Part shown: positions 8,661 to 25,534 of the stretch, in pieces
How positions within the stretch are numbered: position 1 is the stretch's first letter
Layout of the letters: every line of letters starts with the position of its first letter
Virus record (IMG/VR): IMGVR_UViG_3300048837_000883
Span: 1 to 26,064 of that record
Source of the DNA: a virus
DNA: 26,064 bases
Direction: 5' to 3' (one strand)
Made by a program: the position numbers and the translations under genes
Notes under the pieces: model-generated
The model's database searches: none
What the model was told of the DNA's origin: nothing
The model's input: only the letters and a program-made list of their open reading frames with translations

Positions 8661-8890
8661 CCCGGTCGGCCCTCCCGTTGTGCGCGTGCGACGCGCTTTT
8701 TACAGCGTTCCGCCACCGCATCGGCCCAGCCGGCGGGCACCTGGTGCAGGCGCTCGATGCGCGCGTCCCGCGTCGCGCCGGACTCCACGTAATCCACCCA
8801 ATGCGCAAAGCCCCACAACTCGCGCGCCACGGCGTCGCGCTCGGCGTCGCTGTACATGCGCAGGGGGCGGATTTCTGGAACGCTGGACAT
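8657..8890 (-). CDS. first gene of the leftward late operon, small unknown protein
   Basis: The 77-residue protein is mostly helical and charged (MYSDAERDAVARELWGFAHW, then RIERLHQVPAGWADAVAERCKKR). I do not recognise the family. Its ATG at 8890 lies exactly 33 bases after the shared late-promoter motif, and there is no Shine-Dalgarno sequence, matching the two other late-promoter genes. It overlaps the endolysin start by ATGA. It may be an auxiliary lysis protein or regulator; this is only from position. Confidence 0.75.
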   Translation of the reverse strand: MSSVPEIRPLRMYSDAERDAVARELWGFAHWVDYVESGATRDARIERLHQVPAGWADAVAERCKKRVARAQREGRPG

Positions 8891-8941
8891 GCCCGGAAGG
8901 CTACCGGGCGGATGGCGCGGTGGCAGCTAATCGGGGTTATG
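8891..8941 (-). promoter_or_regulatory. late promoter, leftward, with shared 18-base activator site
   Basis: On the minus strand CATAACCCCGATTAGCTG (8941-8924) is followed after 20 bases by a -10-like TAGCCT (8903-8898) and 7 bases later by the ATG at 8890. The same 18 bases occur at the two rightward late operons with identical spacing. The site would lie about 50 to 34 bases before transcription start, where Mor and C bind in Mu. It should drive the lysis-terminase-portal-gpF-gpG block. Confidence 0.75.
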
Positions 8942-20665: not shown

Positions 20666-20671
20666 TTGCGC

Positions 20672-20700
20672 TACACTGTGTTCATGATGTCCACAGTGTA
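20672..20700. promoter_or_regulatory. operator: 9-base perfect inverted repeat between repressor and early genes
   Basis: TACACTGTG (20672-20680) and CACAGTGTA (20692-20700) are perfect complements around an 11-base spacer. The right arm contains the -10 hexamer of the leftward early promoter, so binding would block it. The repressor (20717) and the Cro-like protein (20399) are the obvious candidates to bind. I found no second copy in the window. Confidence 0.8.
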
Positions 20701-20723
20701 GGTACAGACGAACGTCATGTCAA
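20688..20723 (-). promoter_or_regulatory. leftward early promoter (Pe)
   Basis: On the minus strand the -35 is TTGACA (20723-20718), a perfect match to the sigma-70 consensus, and the -10 is TACACT (20700-20695), 17 bases apart. Transcription would start near 20688 and read into the early operon. The -35 overlaps the repressor start codon (ATG 20717) and the -10 lies in the operator, so repressor binding and promoter firing are mutually exclusive. Confidence 0.82.
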
Positions 20724-21217
20724 CGGAAAAAGACGTGCCTTTGAGCGTTGGTGAACGTCTGCGATTGGCGGTCGATGCGTCGGGCATGAGTGCCGCGGGG
20801 TTTGCTCGACTGACCGGGATCCCTTATCGCAGCTTGCAGCAGTACTTTGCGGGAGACCGGCATCCATCCGCGGATGCGCTGGCGAGGCTGTGTGTCGCTT
20901 CGAGCCTAGACATAAATTGGCTGCTGACTGGAAAGGGTTCGATGTGGCGAAACGCGATCGCGGCCGTCGGCCCTGCGGATGGTCTTTCTTTTGGCGAGCT
21001 TGGTCCGCTCAACGAGGACGAGGTTCGCCTCATTCATCTGTTCCGGCAGGTCGAGCCTGACGGGCAGAAGGCGGTGGTGTCGCTGGCTGCAGAGCGGAGC
21101 GACGTTATCGCGACAAAGACTCGGCTTGCCGCTCTGGCGGCCGATCTTGAGTCGCGCATCGCCGAGCTGGACCGACGGGGCATCCGCCCCGAGGAGGCTG
21201 CGGCCGACGAGAGCTGA
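20717..21217 (+). CDS. prophage repressor (c), XRE-type HTH
   Basis: The 166-residue protein has an N-terminal HTH (MSAAGFARLTGIPYRSLQQYFAG, about residues 20-45) followed by RLCVASSLDINWLLTGKG. It has no S24 protease domain, only a helical C-terminal region with LIHLFRQVEPDGQKAVVSLAAE, so it is probably not induced by RecA-stimulated self-cleavage. It is the only rightward gene at the divergent control region and starts inside the -35 of the early promoter. No Shine-Dalgarno sequence precedes the ATG. Confidence 0.87.
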   Translation: MSTEKDVPLSVGERLRLAVDASGMSAAGFARLTGIPYRSLQQYFAGDRHPSADALARLCVASSLDINWLLTGKGSMWRNAIAAVGPADGLSFGELGPLNEDEVRLIHLFRQVEPDGQKAVVSLAAERSDVIATKTRLAALAADLESRIAELDRRGIRPEEAAADES

Positions 21218-21266
21218 CACGGCCGCGGATTGTGCAGGTGGACTGGAAGCATCACGGAGGTGTGGA

Positions 21267-21515
21267 ATGCGCGGGATGGTCTTGTTGGCGTGTGCATTGG
21301 CGTTCGGGGTTGGGGCGGCGGCGGCCGAGGGGCCGACGAAGCCGAAGCCGCAGCCGCAGAAGACGTCGGAGTCCGGCTTCAGTTGCGGGGATAAGCGCTA
21401 CTGCAAGGAGATGCGGAGCTGTGCCGAGGCGCGGTTCCACTTTGAGCAATGTGGCGAGCGAAAGCTCGACCGAGACGGAGATGGACGGCCATGCGACAAC
21501 GTATGCAAGCGCTGA
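21267..21515 (+). CDS. secreted Excalibur-domain calcium-binding protein
   Basis: The 82-residue protein has a signal peptide (MRGMVLLACALAFGVGAAAA), a Lys/Pro/Gln linker, and an Excalibur-type domain: SCGDKRYCKEMRSCAEARFHFEQC, then a DRDGDGRPCDNVC calcium loop (parts shown). GGAGG lies seven bases before the ATG, one of the best ribosome binding sites in the window. It overlaps the nuclease gene by 25 bases, and the pairing of Excalibur domains with secreted nucleases is known in other bacteria. Confidence 0.85.
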   Translation: MRGMVLLACALAFGVGAAAAEGPTKPKPQPQKTSESGFSCGDKRYCKEMRSCAEARFHFEQCGERKLDRDGDGRPCDNVCKR

Positions 21516-21979
21516 TCGGGGCTGCGGCCCTGCTGCTCGCCTGGCCGCTGGCGGCCGAGATCCTGGAGGGTCGGGTGGTGGCGGTGACCGACGGGGATAC
21601 GGTCAAGGTGCTCACGGCAGAGCTGGTCGAGGAGCGGGTGCGGCTGGCGACGATCGACGCGCCGGAGCGTAAGCAGCCGTTCGGGTCGGTCTCCAAGGCG
21701 CATCTCTCCGACCTGGTGTTCGGTCGGGAGGTTGCGGTGGACTGGCATAAGCGTGACCGCTGGGGCCGGATCATCGGCGTGGTGCTGGTGGACGGGCGCG
21801 ATGCGGGGCTGGAGCAGATCGGCGCCGGCCTGGCCTGGCACTATACGGACTATGCGCGCGAGCAGTCCGAGGCGGACCGGGCGCGCTATGCGCGCTCGGA
21901 GATCGACGCCCGTGCCGAGGCGCTGGGATTGTGGTCCGAGGAGGGGCCGATTCCGCCCTGGGAGTGGCGTCGGCGCTAG
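21491..21979 (+). CDS. secreted staphylococcal-type nuclease (SNase/thermonuclease)
   Basis: The 162-residue protein has a signal peptide (ALIGAAALLLAWPLAAEI), then the SNase fold: GRVVAVTDGDTVKV, ERVRLATIDAPER with the catalytic Arg and Glu candidates, and KRDRWGRIIGVVLVDG with the second Arg. It ends with the GLWSEEGPIPPWEWR tail typical of bacterial SNase proteins. It would degrade DNA outside the cytoplasm in a calcium-dependent way. It sits between repressor and late operon, a common place for lysogenic-conversion genes. Start at 21491; ATG 21503 is also possible. Confidence 0.88.
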   Translation: MRQRMQALIGAAALLLAWPLAAEILEGRVVAVTDGDTVKVLTAELVEERVRLATIDAPERKQPFGSVSKAHLSDLVFGREVAVDWHKRDRWGRIIGVVLVDGRDAGLEQIGAGLAWHYTDYAREQSEADRARYARSEIDARAEALGLWSEEGPIPPWEWRRR

Positions 21980-22020
21980 TGTGATCGAGCCACCCCGGTT
22001 CGATTGGTGTCATGAACACC

Positions 22021-22044
22021 GGAGCGCGCCTCTGGGCGCGCTCC
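22021..22044 (+). terminator. strong hairpin after the nuclease gene
   Basis: GGAGCGCGCC (22021-22030) and GGCGCGCTCC (22035-22044) form a perfect 10-base stem with a TCTG loop. No T run follows, so it may be a Rho-assisted terminator or simply a structure that shields the late promoter at 22130 from repressor/nuclease transcripts. The rest of 21980-22129 shows nothing else I can identify. Confidence 0.45.
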
Positions 22045-22129
22045 CGGTTGCGGGCGGGCCATCGCAGCGCCGAAACCAGCGGGCGCCCGAGCGGCCTGTT
22101 TTGGCCGCGCCATCAAAACCCCCGAATCG

Positions 22130-22180
22130 CATAACCCCGATTAGCTGACGGCCTCCCCGCTGTCGCGCACCATGCGCGAC
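22130..22180 (+). promoter_or_regulatory. late promoter for the protease-capsid operon
   Basis: CATAACCCCGATTAGCTG (22130-22147) is identical to the site at the leftward late operon and at 25484. A -10-like CACCAT (22168-22173) follows after 20 bases, and the ATG at 22181 begins 7 bases after it. Of the -10 only the A in position 2 and the T in position 6 are conserved among the three promoters. Confidence 0.75.
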
Positions 22181-23263
22181 ATGAACCCTCTCGATCTCCA
22201 CGTTGTCGCGGCTTGCGCTGCGTCCCCTCTACAGCCGGGTGGTGCTGTCGGGTTGCTGGCGGCATGCACCCTGGAGGTGCCGGCCGACCAGCCTTTTATT
22301 CGCCTGATCCCCGCGGGGGCGTTCGACGCCAGCCGCGGGGCGTTGATGGGCGCCGGCCCGTGGCGCCTGGACGCGGACCTTGCCGCGGCGCTGATGGCGC
22401 GGGTGCGCGAGCGTGCACCGCTGCCCATCGACTATGAGCATCAGACCCTGCTCGCGGAGCGCAACGGCTTGCCGGCTCCGGCGGCCGGCTGGATTGATCC
22501 GGCCGGGCTCGAGTGGCGCGAGGACGGCCTCTACGGGCCGGTGACCTGGACCCCGCGCGCGGCCGCGATGCTGCGCGAGGGCGAGTACCGCTATCTCTCC
22601 CCTGTGTTTACCTACTCGGACGAGGACGGCGCCGTGCGCGATCTGCTGCACGCCGCGCTGACCAACCAGCCGGCCATCGATACCGAATCACTGCATCGCG
22701 CGGCGGCCCGCCTGGGTTGCGCGCATCAATCGTCAACGGAGACCCCGAAGATGCCCGATCCGATCCGCGCCAAACTCGGCGTGCCCGAAGAGTCCGACAC
22801 GGATGCCGTTGTGCAGGCGATCGACGCCTTGCAGGCCCGGGTCGCGCAGACCCAAGAGCAGGTGGCCGCGGCGAGCCGTGCCGCCGCGCCGGACCCGGCG
22901 CAGTACGTGCCGATCGCGGCGCATCAAGAGCAGGTGGCGGCGCTGCGCGCGCGGCTGGCCGCGCAAGACGAGAGCGAGCTGGAGCGGGAGATTGCTGCTG
23001 GGCTCGAGGACGGGACGATCGCCGGGCCGGCGATGGCTGCGCATCTGCGCACGCTGGGGGTGGCGGCCTGTCGCGAGCACCGCGCGTCGATGGGGTCGAT
23101 CGCGGCCCTGACGCGCACCCAGACGCAGGGCCGCGCGCCCGAGGGCAAGCGGGCAGATGCGCCGGCGCTCTCGGGCGAGGAGCTGGCCGTCTGCAAGGCA
23201 ATGGGGCTTGACCCCAAGGATTATCTGGCGGCGAAGCCGTCCGCTGAGGAGGCGACCCGATGA
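22181..23263 (+). CDS. I: head maturation protease and scaffold (Mu gpI-like)
   Basis: The 360-residue protein matches the Mu gpI family: FIRLIPAGAFDASRG near the N-terminus, PIDYEHQTLLAERNG, and YRYLSPVFTY ... LHAALTNQPAI, features of the prohead protease. The C-terminal half is a scaffold: helical, acidic (ARVAQTQEQVAAAS; LEREIAAGLEDG). I chose ATG 22181 rather than the in-frame ATG 22172 because 22181 is exactly 33 bases after the late motif, as at the two other late promoters. In Mu the next-but-one product Z is an internally started scaffold, and a matching internal ATG is present at 22751. Confidence 0.9.
   Translation: MNPLDLHVVAACAASPLQPGGAVGLLAACTLEVPADQPFIRLIPAGAFDASRGALMGAGPWRLDADLAAALMARVRERAPLPIDYEHQTLLAERNGLPAPAAGWIDPAGLEWREDGLYGPVTWTPRAAAMLREGEYRYLSPVFTYSDEDGAVRDLLHAALTNQPAIDTESLHRAAARLGCAHQSSTETPKMPDPIRAKLGVPEESDTDAVVQAIDALQARVAQTQEQVAAASRAAAPDPAQYVPIAAHQEQVAALRARLAAQDESELEREIAAGLEDGTIAGPAMAAHLRTLGVAACREHRASMGSIAALTRTQTQGRAPEGKRADAPALSGEELAVCKAMGLDPKDYLAAKPSAEEATR
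22751..23263 (+). CDS. Z: scaffold form from internal start in protease gene (Mu Z-like)
   Basis: The ATG at 22751 is in frame with the protease and is preceded by GGAG at nine bases. It would give a 170-residue protein (MPDPIRAKLGVPEESD...) containing only the scaffold region. In Mu gene I and its internal start product Z give protease and scaffold in unequal amounts, so the same arrangement is likely here. Confidence 0.65.
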   Translation: MPDPIRAKLGVPEESDTDAVVQAIDALQARVAQTQEQVAAASRAAAPDPAQYVPIAAHQEQVAALRARLAAQDESELEREIAAGLEDGTIAGPAMAAHLRTLGVAACREHRASMGSIAALTRTQTQGRAPEGKRADAPALSGEELAVCKAMGLDPKDYLAAKPSAEEATR

Positions 23264-23671
23264 GCGCGTTGACCGAGTCCCGCAACACGCCGGAGAAAAC
23301 CGGCCTGTATTTTCATGACCCCGTGGCGGCGACGACGACGCTGCATGCCGGGGGGTTGGCGTGCCTGAATGCGGCGGGCAACCTGGTGCCGGGGTCGGTG
23401 TCCACGACGCTCAAGGCGCGCGGTCGGGCCGAGGAGACCGTGGTGAACGCGGGCGCTGCGGGCGCGGCGAACTGCCAGGTCAAGGCGGGCGTGTTCCGCT
23501 TCAACAACTCCGCCGCGGGGCGATGCGATCGCGCGCGCGGACATCGGTGCGGACTGCTACATCGTCGATGACCAGACGGTGGCGAAGACGAGCGGGACGA
23601 ATACGCGCAGCGTCGCCGGCACCGTGATGGATGTCGACGCGGTCGGCGTCTGGGTCCGCATCGGGCTCTGA
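23260..23671 (+). pseudogene. capsid cement/decoration protein gene with a +1 frameshift
   Basis: Frame one gives MSALTESRNTPEKTGLYF ... GVFRFNNSAAG and then switches; the +1 frame continues DAIARADIGADCYIVDDQT and SVAGTVMDVDAVGVWVRIGL to a stop at 23671. Together these give a full-length protein of about 136 residues like the capsid-stabilising proteins that follow the protease in Mu-like phages. The break is in GGGG at 23517-23520, where one G too many shifts the frame after GCG GGG. Left as is, the product is a 103-residue protein with an unrelated tail. It overlaps the protease stop as ATGA. Mutation, assembly error and recoding are all possible. Confidence 0.8.
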
Positions 23672-23697
23672 GCCCATCTAATCGAGTAGAGATATCC

Positions 23698-25467: not shown

Positions 25468-25483
25468 ACCTGTCTGGATTACA

Positions 25484-25534
25484 TAACCCCGATTAGCTGC
25501 CCCCCTGCCCCGCAACGCCGATACTGTCGGCCAT
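25484..25534 (+). promoter_or_regulatory. late promoter for DUF1834 and downstream genes
   Basis: CATAACCCCGATTAGCTG (25484-25501) is followed after 20 bases by GATACT (25522-25527) as -10 and, after 7 bases, by ATG 25535. It is the best -10 of the three. A second rightward promoter so close to the first one would let tail-side genes be transcribed separately from head genes. Confidence 0.78.

What the first reader, a model, noticed from the sequence alone, without database searches (positions are those of the whole stretch)
21267..21979. Secreted Excalibur and nuclease pair beside the repressor
Two signal-peptide proteins, one calcium-binding and one SNase-type nuclease, overlap by 25 bases between repressor and late promoter, with one of the best ribosome binding sites in the window. 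They are not needed for a standard Mu-like cycle. They could be expressed in the lysogen and degrade extracellular or incoming DNA, affecting uptake, biofilm or competing phages.
Basis: partly seen in the sequence, partly recalled or inferred. Interest (0 to 1): 0.55.

Follow-up and report, generated by a model that had tools for sequence, protein, structure and literature searches.

The report
Phage-borne secreted DNase with calcium partner
A dormant virus of bacteria carries, right behind the gene that keeps it dormant, two small genes for exported proteins - a DNA-cutting enzyme and a probable calcium-binding partner - that probably let the infected cell destroy DNA arriving from outside, a job that many other phages seem to do with one fused protein.

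Summary
Window 21267-21515 (+) encodes an 82-aa Excalibur protein and 21491-21979 (+) a 162-aa staphylococcal-nuclease (SNase) homologue. Both have signal-peptide-like N-termini, they overlap by 25 bp, the SNase keeps the catalytic residues, and the first gene has the second-best Shine-Dalgarno of 44 called genes. They follow the repressor gene by 50 bp on its strand. A perfect 18-bp repeat at the head of three late-type operons lies after the pair, not before it, so the pair sits outside those late units. 46 of 79 viral Excalibur relatives are fused to an SNase in one frame; in one Mu-like phage (L303) such a fusion occupies the same slot between repressor and protease I. SPbeta YokF has the same two domains and is reported to lower transformation tenfold. 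The window's SNase belongs to another branch (unfused, mostly host enzymes), so the pair looks like an independent two-gene assembly of a YokF-like secreted nuclease. Neighbouring slots in other phages hold RexA and defence candidates. Most likely: an accessory module expressed in the lysogen that destroys DNA outside the cytoplasm, against transformation and/or superinfection. Expression, export and activity are untested. New variant of a known kind.

The parts
20671..20701 (.). operator-like palindrome CTACACTGTG-11 nt-CACAGTGTAG between the divergent ner-like and repressor genes
   Evidence: the repeat finder; single copy, none expected by chance; overlaps the leftward sigma-70-like promoter 20723-20695
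20717..21217 (+). repressor-type HTH protein, 166 aa
   Evidence: HTH_31 30.9 bits, HTH_3 26.9 bits; PHROG transcriptional regulators/repressors
21256..21260 (+). Shine-Dalgarno GGAGG of the Excalibur gene
   Evidence: sequence; 2nd of 44 genes by anti-SD pairing
21267..21515 (+). secreted Excalibur protein, 82 aa; signal-peptide-like N-terminus; motif D68-R-D-G-D-G-R-P-C76
   Evidence: PF05901 34.5 bits, PHROG 5854 78.5 bits, alignment A2
21491..21979 (+). secreted SNase (thermonuclease) homologue, 162 aa; D36, R51, D56, E59, R93 match SNase D21, R35, D40, E43, R87
   Evidence: PF00565 68.8 bits; alignments; AlphaFold pLDDT 93.8; Foldseek to staphylococcal nuclease E 3.5e-11
21980..22075 (+). 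structured spacer with several hairpins, among them a perfect 10-bp GC arm pair at 22021-22044; possible transcription barrier, no T run
   Evidence: fold z-score -3.8, inverted repeat, no terminator by scan
22130..22147 (+). 18-bp element CATAACCCCGATTAGCTG, late-operon head (copy 1, before protease I)
   Evidence: three perfect copies, 0 expected; the only 18-mer present three times
25482..25499 (+). 18-bp element, copy 2, before the gene at 25533
8924..8941 (-). 18-bp element, copy 3, before the leftward operon that starts at 8890 (endolysin, terminase, portal follow)
   Evidence: gene identities
22172..23263 (+). Mu-like protease I (spacing to the 18-mer suggests a start at 22181); first gene after the slot
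   Evidence: PF10123 245 bits; alignment of operon heads

Best explanation
The pair is an accessory module in the lysogeny slot of a Mu-like phage. It is most likely transcribed with the repressor gene in the uninduced lysogen. It makes two exported proteins: a periplasmic or extracellular SNase-type nuclease, and a small Excalibur protein that works with it, by inference as a calcium-binding partner or surface tether. Together they act like the single-chain SNase-Excalibur nucleases of other phages (SPbeta YokF): they cut DNA outside the cytoplasm while the host chromosome stays out of reach. The likely benefit is to the prophage: less uptake of transforming DNA that could replace it, and/or damage to DNA of a competing phage on its way in. 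Shown: the genes, domains, catalytic residues, predicted fold, position, absence of the late element in front of the pair, and fusions of the two domains elsewhere. Inferred: co-transcription, export, activity, cooperation of these two proteins, and purpose (anti-transformation about 0.35, superinfection exclusion about 0.3, the rest split among other uses).
For: Domains and catalytic residues; nuclease fold. Same-strand position 50 bp after the repressor, upstream of and without the 18-bp late-type element. Domain link: 46 of 79 viral relatives of the Excalibur protein carry an SNase in the same frame; 11 of 30 Excalibur loci fetched from 369 genomes of one class are such fusions; SPbeta YokF and Moraxella phage Mcat8 too. 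Same slot: L303, Mu-like by protease I (311 bits), has repressor - 69 bp - SNase-Excalibur fusion - protease I. Lysogeny-slot bias of phage SNases: 12 of 26 dereplicated viral SNases have a repressor-type HTH gene within 2.5 kb on the same strand against 6 of 51 host-genome SNases (Fisher p 0.0014) and 56 of 359 other genes in the same viral loci (p 0.0005). Exclusion-type neighbours in that slot: RexA (197.7 bits), PADLOC defence candidates M66A/B, M24B, M04A, KAP NTPase. Reported phenotypes of prophage DNases: YokF lowers transformation about tenfold, CJIE1 Dns about a thousandfold (passages of PMC4774983); CJIE1 is Mu-like (passages of PMC8955182).
Against: No expression, secretion or activity data. 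14 of 26 viral SNases have no detected repressor nearby, and of 41 fused Excalibur loci with enough upstream sequence only 14 do; the HTH model misses some repressors, but this also weakens the rule. 33 of 79 viral Excalibur genes stand alone with no SNase within 2 kb, so Excalibur may have a job of its own. None of 80 host SNase relatives has an Excalibur motif in the fetched flanks, so this SNase type works without it. The two-gene arrangement, in the order Excalibur-SNase, reverse to the fusions, was found only here. No promoter for the repressor unit and no terminator before the late element were found. The tree groups the SNase with unfused enzymes, so the fusions are analogues, not its parents.
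Confidence: 0.55

Rival explanations
1. Excalibur and SNase are two independent lysogeny-slot genes that happen to be neighbours; Excalibur acts alone (for instance as an envelope or receptor-blocking exclusion factor) and the SNase is an ordinary secreted nuclease.
For: 33 of 79 viral Excalibur relatives are stand-alone, 20 of 29 with enough upstream sequence behind a repressor-type gene; P2-like Aeromonas LPM4 and Mannheimia PHL101 carry Excalibur without SNase there. SNases of the window's branch lack Excalibur.
Against: 46 of 79 relatives are fusions; 11 of 30 in bacterial genomes; here the two genes overlap by 25 bp, which suggests coupled translation; no other locus seen has both as separate genes, so chance adjacency is unlikely.
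Confidence: 0.22
2. A lytic-phase tool: expressed late, it degrades host or released DNA, lowers viscosity or frees nucleotides at lysis.
For: The pair lies directly before protease I on the same strand; in Curvibacter phage TJ1 the SNase is followed by an inner membrane protein, a murein transglycosylase and later virion genes; YokF is annotated in some SPbeta-like records as a chromosome-degrading nuclease.
Against: The 18-bp element that heads three late-type operons is downstream of the pair and absent before it; signal-peptide-like N-termini would keep the enzyme off the chromosome before lysis; repressor adjacency.
Confidence: 0.13
3. A host-benefit gene (lysogenic conversion for its own sake): extracellular DNA as phosphate or carbon source, biofilm dispersal, escape from DNA traps.
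For: The nearest SNases are stand-alone enzymes in genomes of Nitrosospira, Gallionellaceae, Hydrogenophaga; the prophage DNase CJE1441 of C. jejuni affects biofilm (passages of PMC4372405).
Against: Slot neighbours in other phages are exclusion or defence genes; the host of this phage is unknown, so no benefit can be argued.
Confidence: 0.15

Closest known systems
SPbeta prophage nuclease YokF (SNase + C-terminal Excalibur)
   Same: the same two domains (SNase 113 bits, Excalibur 52 bits), phage-borne, exported (annotated putative lipoprotein); reported to lower transformation about tenfold
   Different: one chain in the order SNase-Excalibur, Gram-positive host, SNase only 31% identical; no repressor among the genes shown around it
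SNase-Excalibur fusion of Mu-like phage L303 (IMGVR_UViG_3300022240_000051)
   Same: same kind of phage (protease I 311 bits), same slot: repressor - 69 bp - gene - protease I; signal-peptide-like N-terminus
   Different: one fused gene; its SNase is not of the window's branch
Island of L002 / Oxalobacter MAG L105
   Same: same genome layout, SNase 57% identical in the same slot
   Different: no Excalibur; the SNase stands with a TM protein, a lipoprotein, a DUF6731 protein and a weak RexB-like protein
CJIE1 Dns of Campylobacter jejuni (Mu-like prophage DNase)
   Same: exported DNase of a Mu-like prophage that blocks natural transformation
   Different: nuclease family of Dns not compared here; no Excalibur reported in the passages read
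SNIPE (membrane-bound GIY-YIG nuclease that cuts phage DNA during injection)
   Same: idea of a nuclease placed at the entry route so that the chromosome is spared
   Different: different nuclease domain, anchored with the nuclease in the cytoplasm, needs DUF4041; here an exported SNase

Membership tests
SNase / thermonuclease (PF00565) | SNase domain above the curated cut-off | tested here: met
   68.8 bits against 21; Foldseek to staphylococcal nuclease, top hits TM 0.81-0.86 on the target
SNase / thermonuclease (PF00565) | catalytic Asp, Arg, Asp, Glu, Arg | tested here: met
   D36, R51, D56, E59, R93; the first four invariant in 25 of 25 aligned rows, R93 in at least 90%; the S. aureus numbering and roles are recalled
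SNase / thermonuclease (PF00565) | Ca2+-dependent nuclease activity | not testable with these tools
   needs a biochemical assay
Excalibur (PF05901) | domain above the curated cut-off with the DxDxDGxxC[E] loop | tested here: met
   34.5 bits against 22; loop DRDGDGRPCD, D instead of the last E; motif consensus recalled
Excalibur (PF05901) | binds calcium | not testable with these tools
   AlphaFold model poor (pLDDT 58.6)
YokF-type SNase-Excalibur nuclease | both domains in one polypeptide, SNase first | tested here: not met
   two ORFs in different frames, Excalibur first
YokF-type SNase-Excalibur nuclease | SNase of the fused branch | tested here: not met
   P0002 in a 51-row branch without fusions (SH-aLRT 97); one clade with the 40 fused rows rejected, p-AU 0.0003; quick tree, group named after the tree was seen
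Prophage lysogenic-conversion / exclusion gene | beside the repressor, same strand, outside lytic operons | tested here: met
   50 bp gap; 18-bp late-type element only downstream
Prophage lysogenic-conversion / exclusion gene | expressed in the lysogen and alters host phenotype | not testable with these tools
   no transcriptome, no strain

The most novel reading that the evidence does not exclude
A two-protein DNA-entry barrier outside the cytoplasm: the prophage arms the envelope of its host with a nuclease whose activity or location depends on a separately made calcium-binding Excalibur subunit, and so cuts both transforming DNA and the genomes of incoming phages in transit. Phages have built this at least twice, as a single fused protein (common) and as two coupled genes (here), which would make secreted SNase-Excalibur a widespread, so far unrecognised superinfection-exclusion and anti-transformation device of temperate phages.
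Probability: 0.27. Interest if true: 0.68.

Novelty: new variant of a known kind. Interest (0 to 1): 0.46.

Why it matters
Secreted prophage DNases are known in a few hosts and are cited as evidence that mobile elements fight transformation, which can delete them. The survey here suggests that an SNase-Excalibur combination, often beside the repressor, is common in temperate phages (46 of 79 Excalibur relatives fused), and this window offers a natural two-gene version in which the role of the Excalibur part can be tested by removing one gene. If it cuts DNA in transit it would also be an exclusion mechanism that needs no recognition of sequence.

Tried and rejected
A split fusion gene (frameshift of a YokF-like ORF) was considered and rejected: the gene order is reversed, the two frames overlap, each ORF has its own start and signal-like N-terminus, and the SNase belongs to another branch. 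A late-operon gene was considered and disfavoured because of the 18-bp element. A chance ORF was rejected by domain scores. Finding close phage relatives through the transposase failed (no relative). Consensus scans gave no promoter or terminator around the pair. The Excalibur model was poor and was not used. Host SNases were searched for an Excalibur neighbour: none in 80 loci. Literature searches for a printed description gave nothing on phage SNase-Excalibur genes; the library lacks most subscription journals. I kept the name 'pair' although Excalibur-only phages argue for independence.

Limits: the gene caller and the repressor HTH model were home-made; viral loci are partly fragments and partly near-copies; the loci came from searches seeded with this window's proteins. 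One search printed 28 of the 40 protease-I loci; one search asked for 37 of 80 host loci and its output was cut; the automatic test used every locus among L002-L174 and the window with a called SNase and at least 2.5 kb upstream, without L001 and L105 (copies of the window and of L002), dereplicated at 85% identity. One search counted 40 fusions from called genes; one search recounted from open frames and gives 46, the number used here. The tree has 40 fused rows after removal of identical domains, Mcat8 included.

Full report
OBSERVATION. The window is a 26,064-base IMG/VR virus record; its host is not given. Window 21267-21515 + encodes 82 aa with a signal-peptide-like N-terminus and an Excalibur domain (PF05901 34.5 bits, cut-off 22; PHROG 5854), and 21491-21979 + encodes 162 aa with a signal-peptide-like N-terminus and an SNase domain (PF00565 68.8 bits, cut-off 21). 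They overlap by 25 bases. The Excalibur gene's Shine-Dalgarno ranks 2nd of 44 called genes, the SNase's 19th.

SURROUNDINGS. The record is Mu-like but rearranged. Leftward from the control region run two HTH genes, a phrog_4623 gene, the transposase (phrog_310), endolysin, small and large terminase, portal and a minor head protein; rightward run the repressor-type HTH gene (20717-21217), the pair, protease I (245 bits) and the major head protein gpT (354 bits). Between the divergent ner-like and repressor genes lies a palindrome, 20671-20701, that overlaps a leftward sigma-70-like promoter.

LATE ELEMENT. A perfect 18-mer, CATAACCCCGATTAGCTG, occurs exactly three times: before protease I (22130-22147), before the gene at 25533 (25482-25499) and, on the minus strand, before the leftward operon starting at 8890 (8924-8941). 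No copy is expected by chance, it is the only 18-mer present three times, and in all three places an ATG lies at the same distance behind it. I read it as the head of the late operons (inference). The pair lies upstream of it, with no copy of its own, and is separated from it by a strongly folding spacer (z -3.8). This supports transcription with the repressor rather than with late genes.

THE NUCLEASE. D36, R51, D56, E59 and R93 match staphylococcal nuclease D21, R35, D40, E43 and R87 (roles recalled). The predicted structure (pLDDT 93.8) matches staphylococcal nuclease (Foldseek E 3.5e-11). The closest sequences are stand-alone SNases in genomes of betaproteobacteria (Nitrosospira, Gallionellaceae, Nitrosomonadales, Polaromonas, Hydrogenophaga; 56-59% identity for the best seven) and the SNase of phage L002 (57%).

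THE SLOT. In phages with the same layout the space between repressor and protease I varies. L002 has a TM protein, a lipoprotein, an SNase, a DUF6731 protein and a TM protein with a weak RexB match. L060/62/63/64 (one phage) has a small secreted Cys-rich protein followed at once by an SNase. L077 has a lipoprotein only, L078 a TM protein only. L303, Mu-like by protease I (311 bits), has a fused SNase-Excalibur gene 69 bp after the repressor. In lambda-like phages the SNase follows the repressor and variable genes such as RexA (L005, Pfam 197.7 bits) and PADLOC candidates M66A/B (L010) and M24B (L003). Automatic count: 12 of 26 dereplicated viral SNases have a repressor-type gene within 2.5 kb on the same strand, against 6 of 51 SNases of genome contigs (p 0.0014) and 56 of 359 other genes of the same viral loci (p 0.0005). 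14 of 26 do not, and several of the 12 are related.

LINK OF THE TWO DOMAINS. Of 79 fetched viral relatives of the Excalibur protein (219 confirmed, best 80 kept), 46 carry an SNase in the same open frame, 33 do not, and none of the 33 has a separate SNase frame within 2 kb. Counted as distinct Excalibur domains: 34 fused, 22 alone. With at least 2.5 kb upstream, 14 of 41 fused and 20 of 29 stand-alone genes have a repressor-type gene within 2.5 kb; 8 and 3 of these within 150 bp. In 369 genomes of the class of a Nitrosospira genome, 26 have an Excalibur match; of 30 fetched loci 11 are SNase-Excalibur fusions. YokF of SPbeta and a protein of Moraxella phage Mcat8, placed 14 bp after the repressor, are such fusions. 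Hence the two domains belong together functionally in many proteins, but Excalibur also occurs alone.

ORIGIN. In a quick tree of 137 SNase domains the window's SNase lies in a 51-row branch (35 host, 15 phage, the window; support 97) that contains none of the 40 fused ones; a tree that unites it with the fused ones is rejected (p-AU 0.0003). The Excalibur domain is nearest to phage Excaliburs, fused (L296, 66%) and alone (L287), in a tree with few columns. So the pair looks like a separate assembly of the same two functions. The two-gene form was seen in no other locus.

MECHANISM. Best reading: the lysogen exports both proteins and they destroy DNA outside the cytoplasm. Precedents, read as passages only: YokF lowers transformation about tenfold, CJIE1 Dns about a thousandfold (PMC4774983); CJIE1 is Mu-like (PMC8955182); a C. 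jejuni prophage DNase affects biofilm (PMC4372405); SNIPE shows that a nuclease at the entry site can cut phage DNA during injection (PMC13190303). The primary papers on YokF and Dns were not read (Dns paper not held).

VERDICT. A real, accessory, probably lysogeny-expressed secreted nuclease module; a new two-gene variant of the phage SNase-Excalibur nuclease. The function is inferred, not shown.

Noticed in passing
window 8924-8941 (-), 22130-22147 (+), 25482-25499 (+): Perfect 18-bp repeat at the heads of three operons at a constant distance from an ATG: probably the late promoter or activator element of this phage. Its 15-bp core was found in no other fetched locus except the window's own copy L001.
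   Followed up: partly
L206-L285, e.g. L063:7039-7410: A family of tiny secreted Cys-rich proteins (PCSGKKGGxSHC...FVCNDGS) in 80 viral loci, 33 with a repressor-type gene upstream and 5 with an SNase within 1.5 kb: perhaps another widespread lysogeny-slot exported protein.
   Followed up: partly
L002:6709-9735: Five-gene island in the same slot of a same-layout phage: TM protein, lipoprotein, SNase, DUF6731 (42 bits) and a TM protein with a weak RexB match (16.5 bits): possibly a Rex-like pair beside a secreted nuclease.
   Followed up: partly
window 23260-23680 (+): The gene between protease I and gpT appears frameshifted relative to the intact 134-aa homologue at L002:11182-11586: its 3' half continues in another frame (seen by eye).
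   Followed up: no
L364:6779-8155: A KAP-family P-loop NTPase (121 bits) a little downstream of an SNase-Excalibur fusion in the repressor slot.
   Followed up: no
L053:6242-7051: In Mannheimia phage PHL101 a DUF3800 protein (PADLOC PDC-M04A, 111 bits) directly follows the stand-alone Excalibur gene downstream of CI.
   Followed up: no
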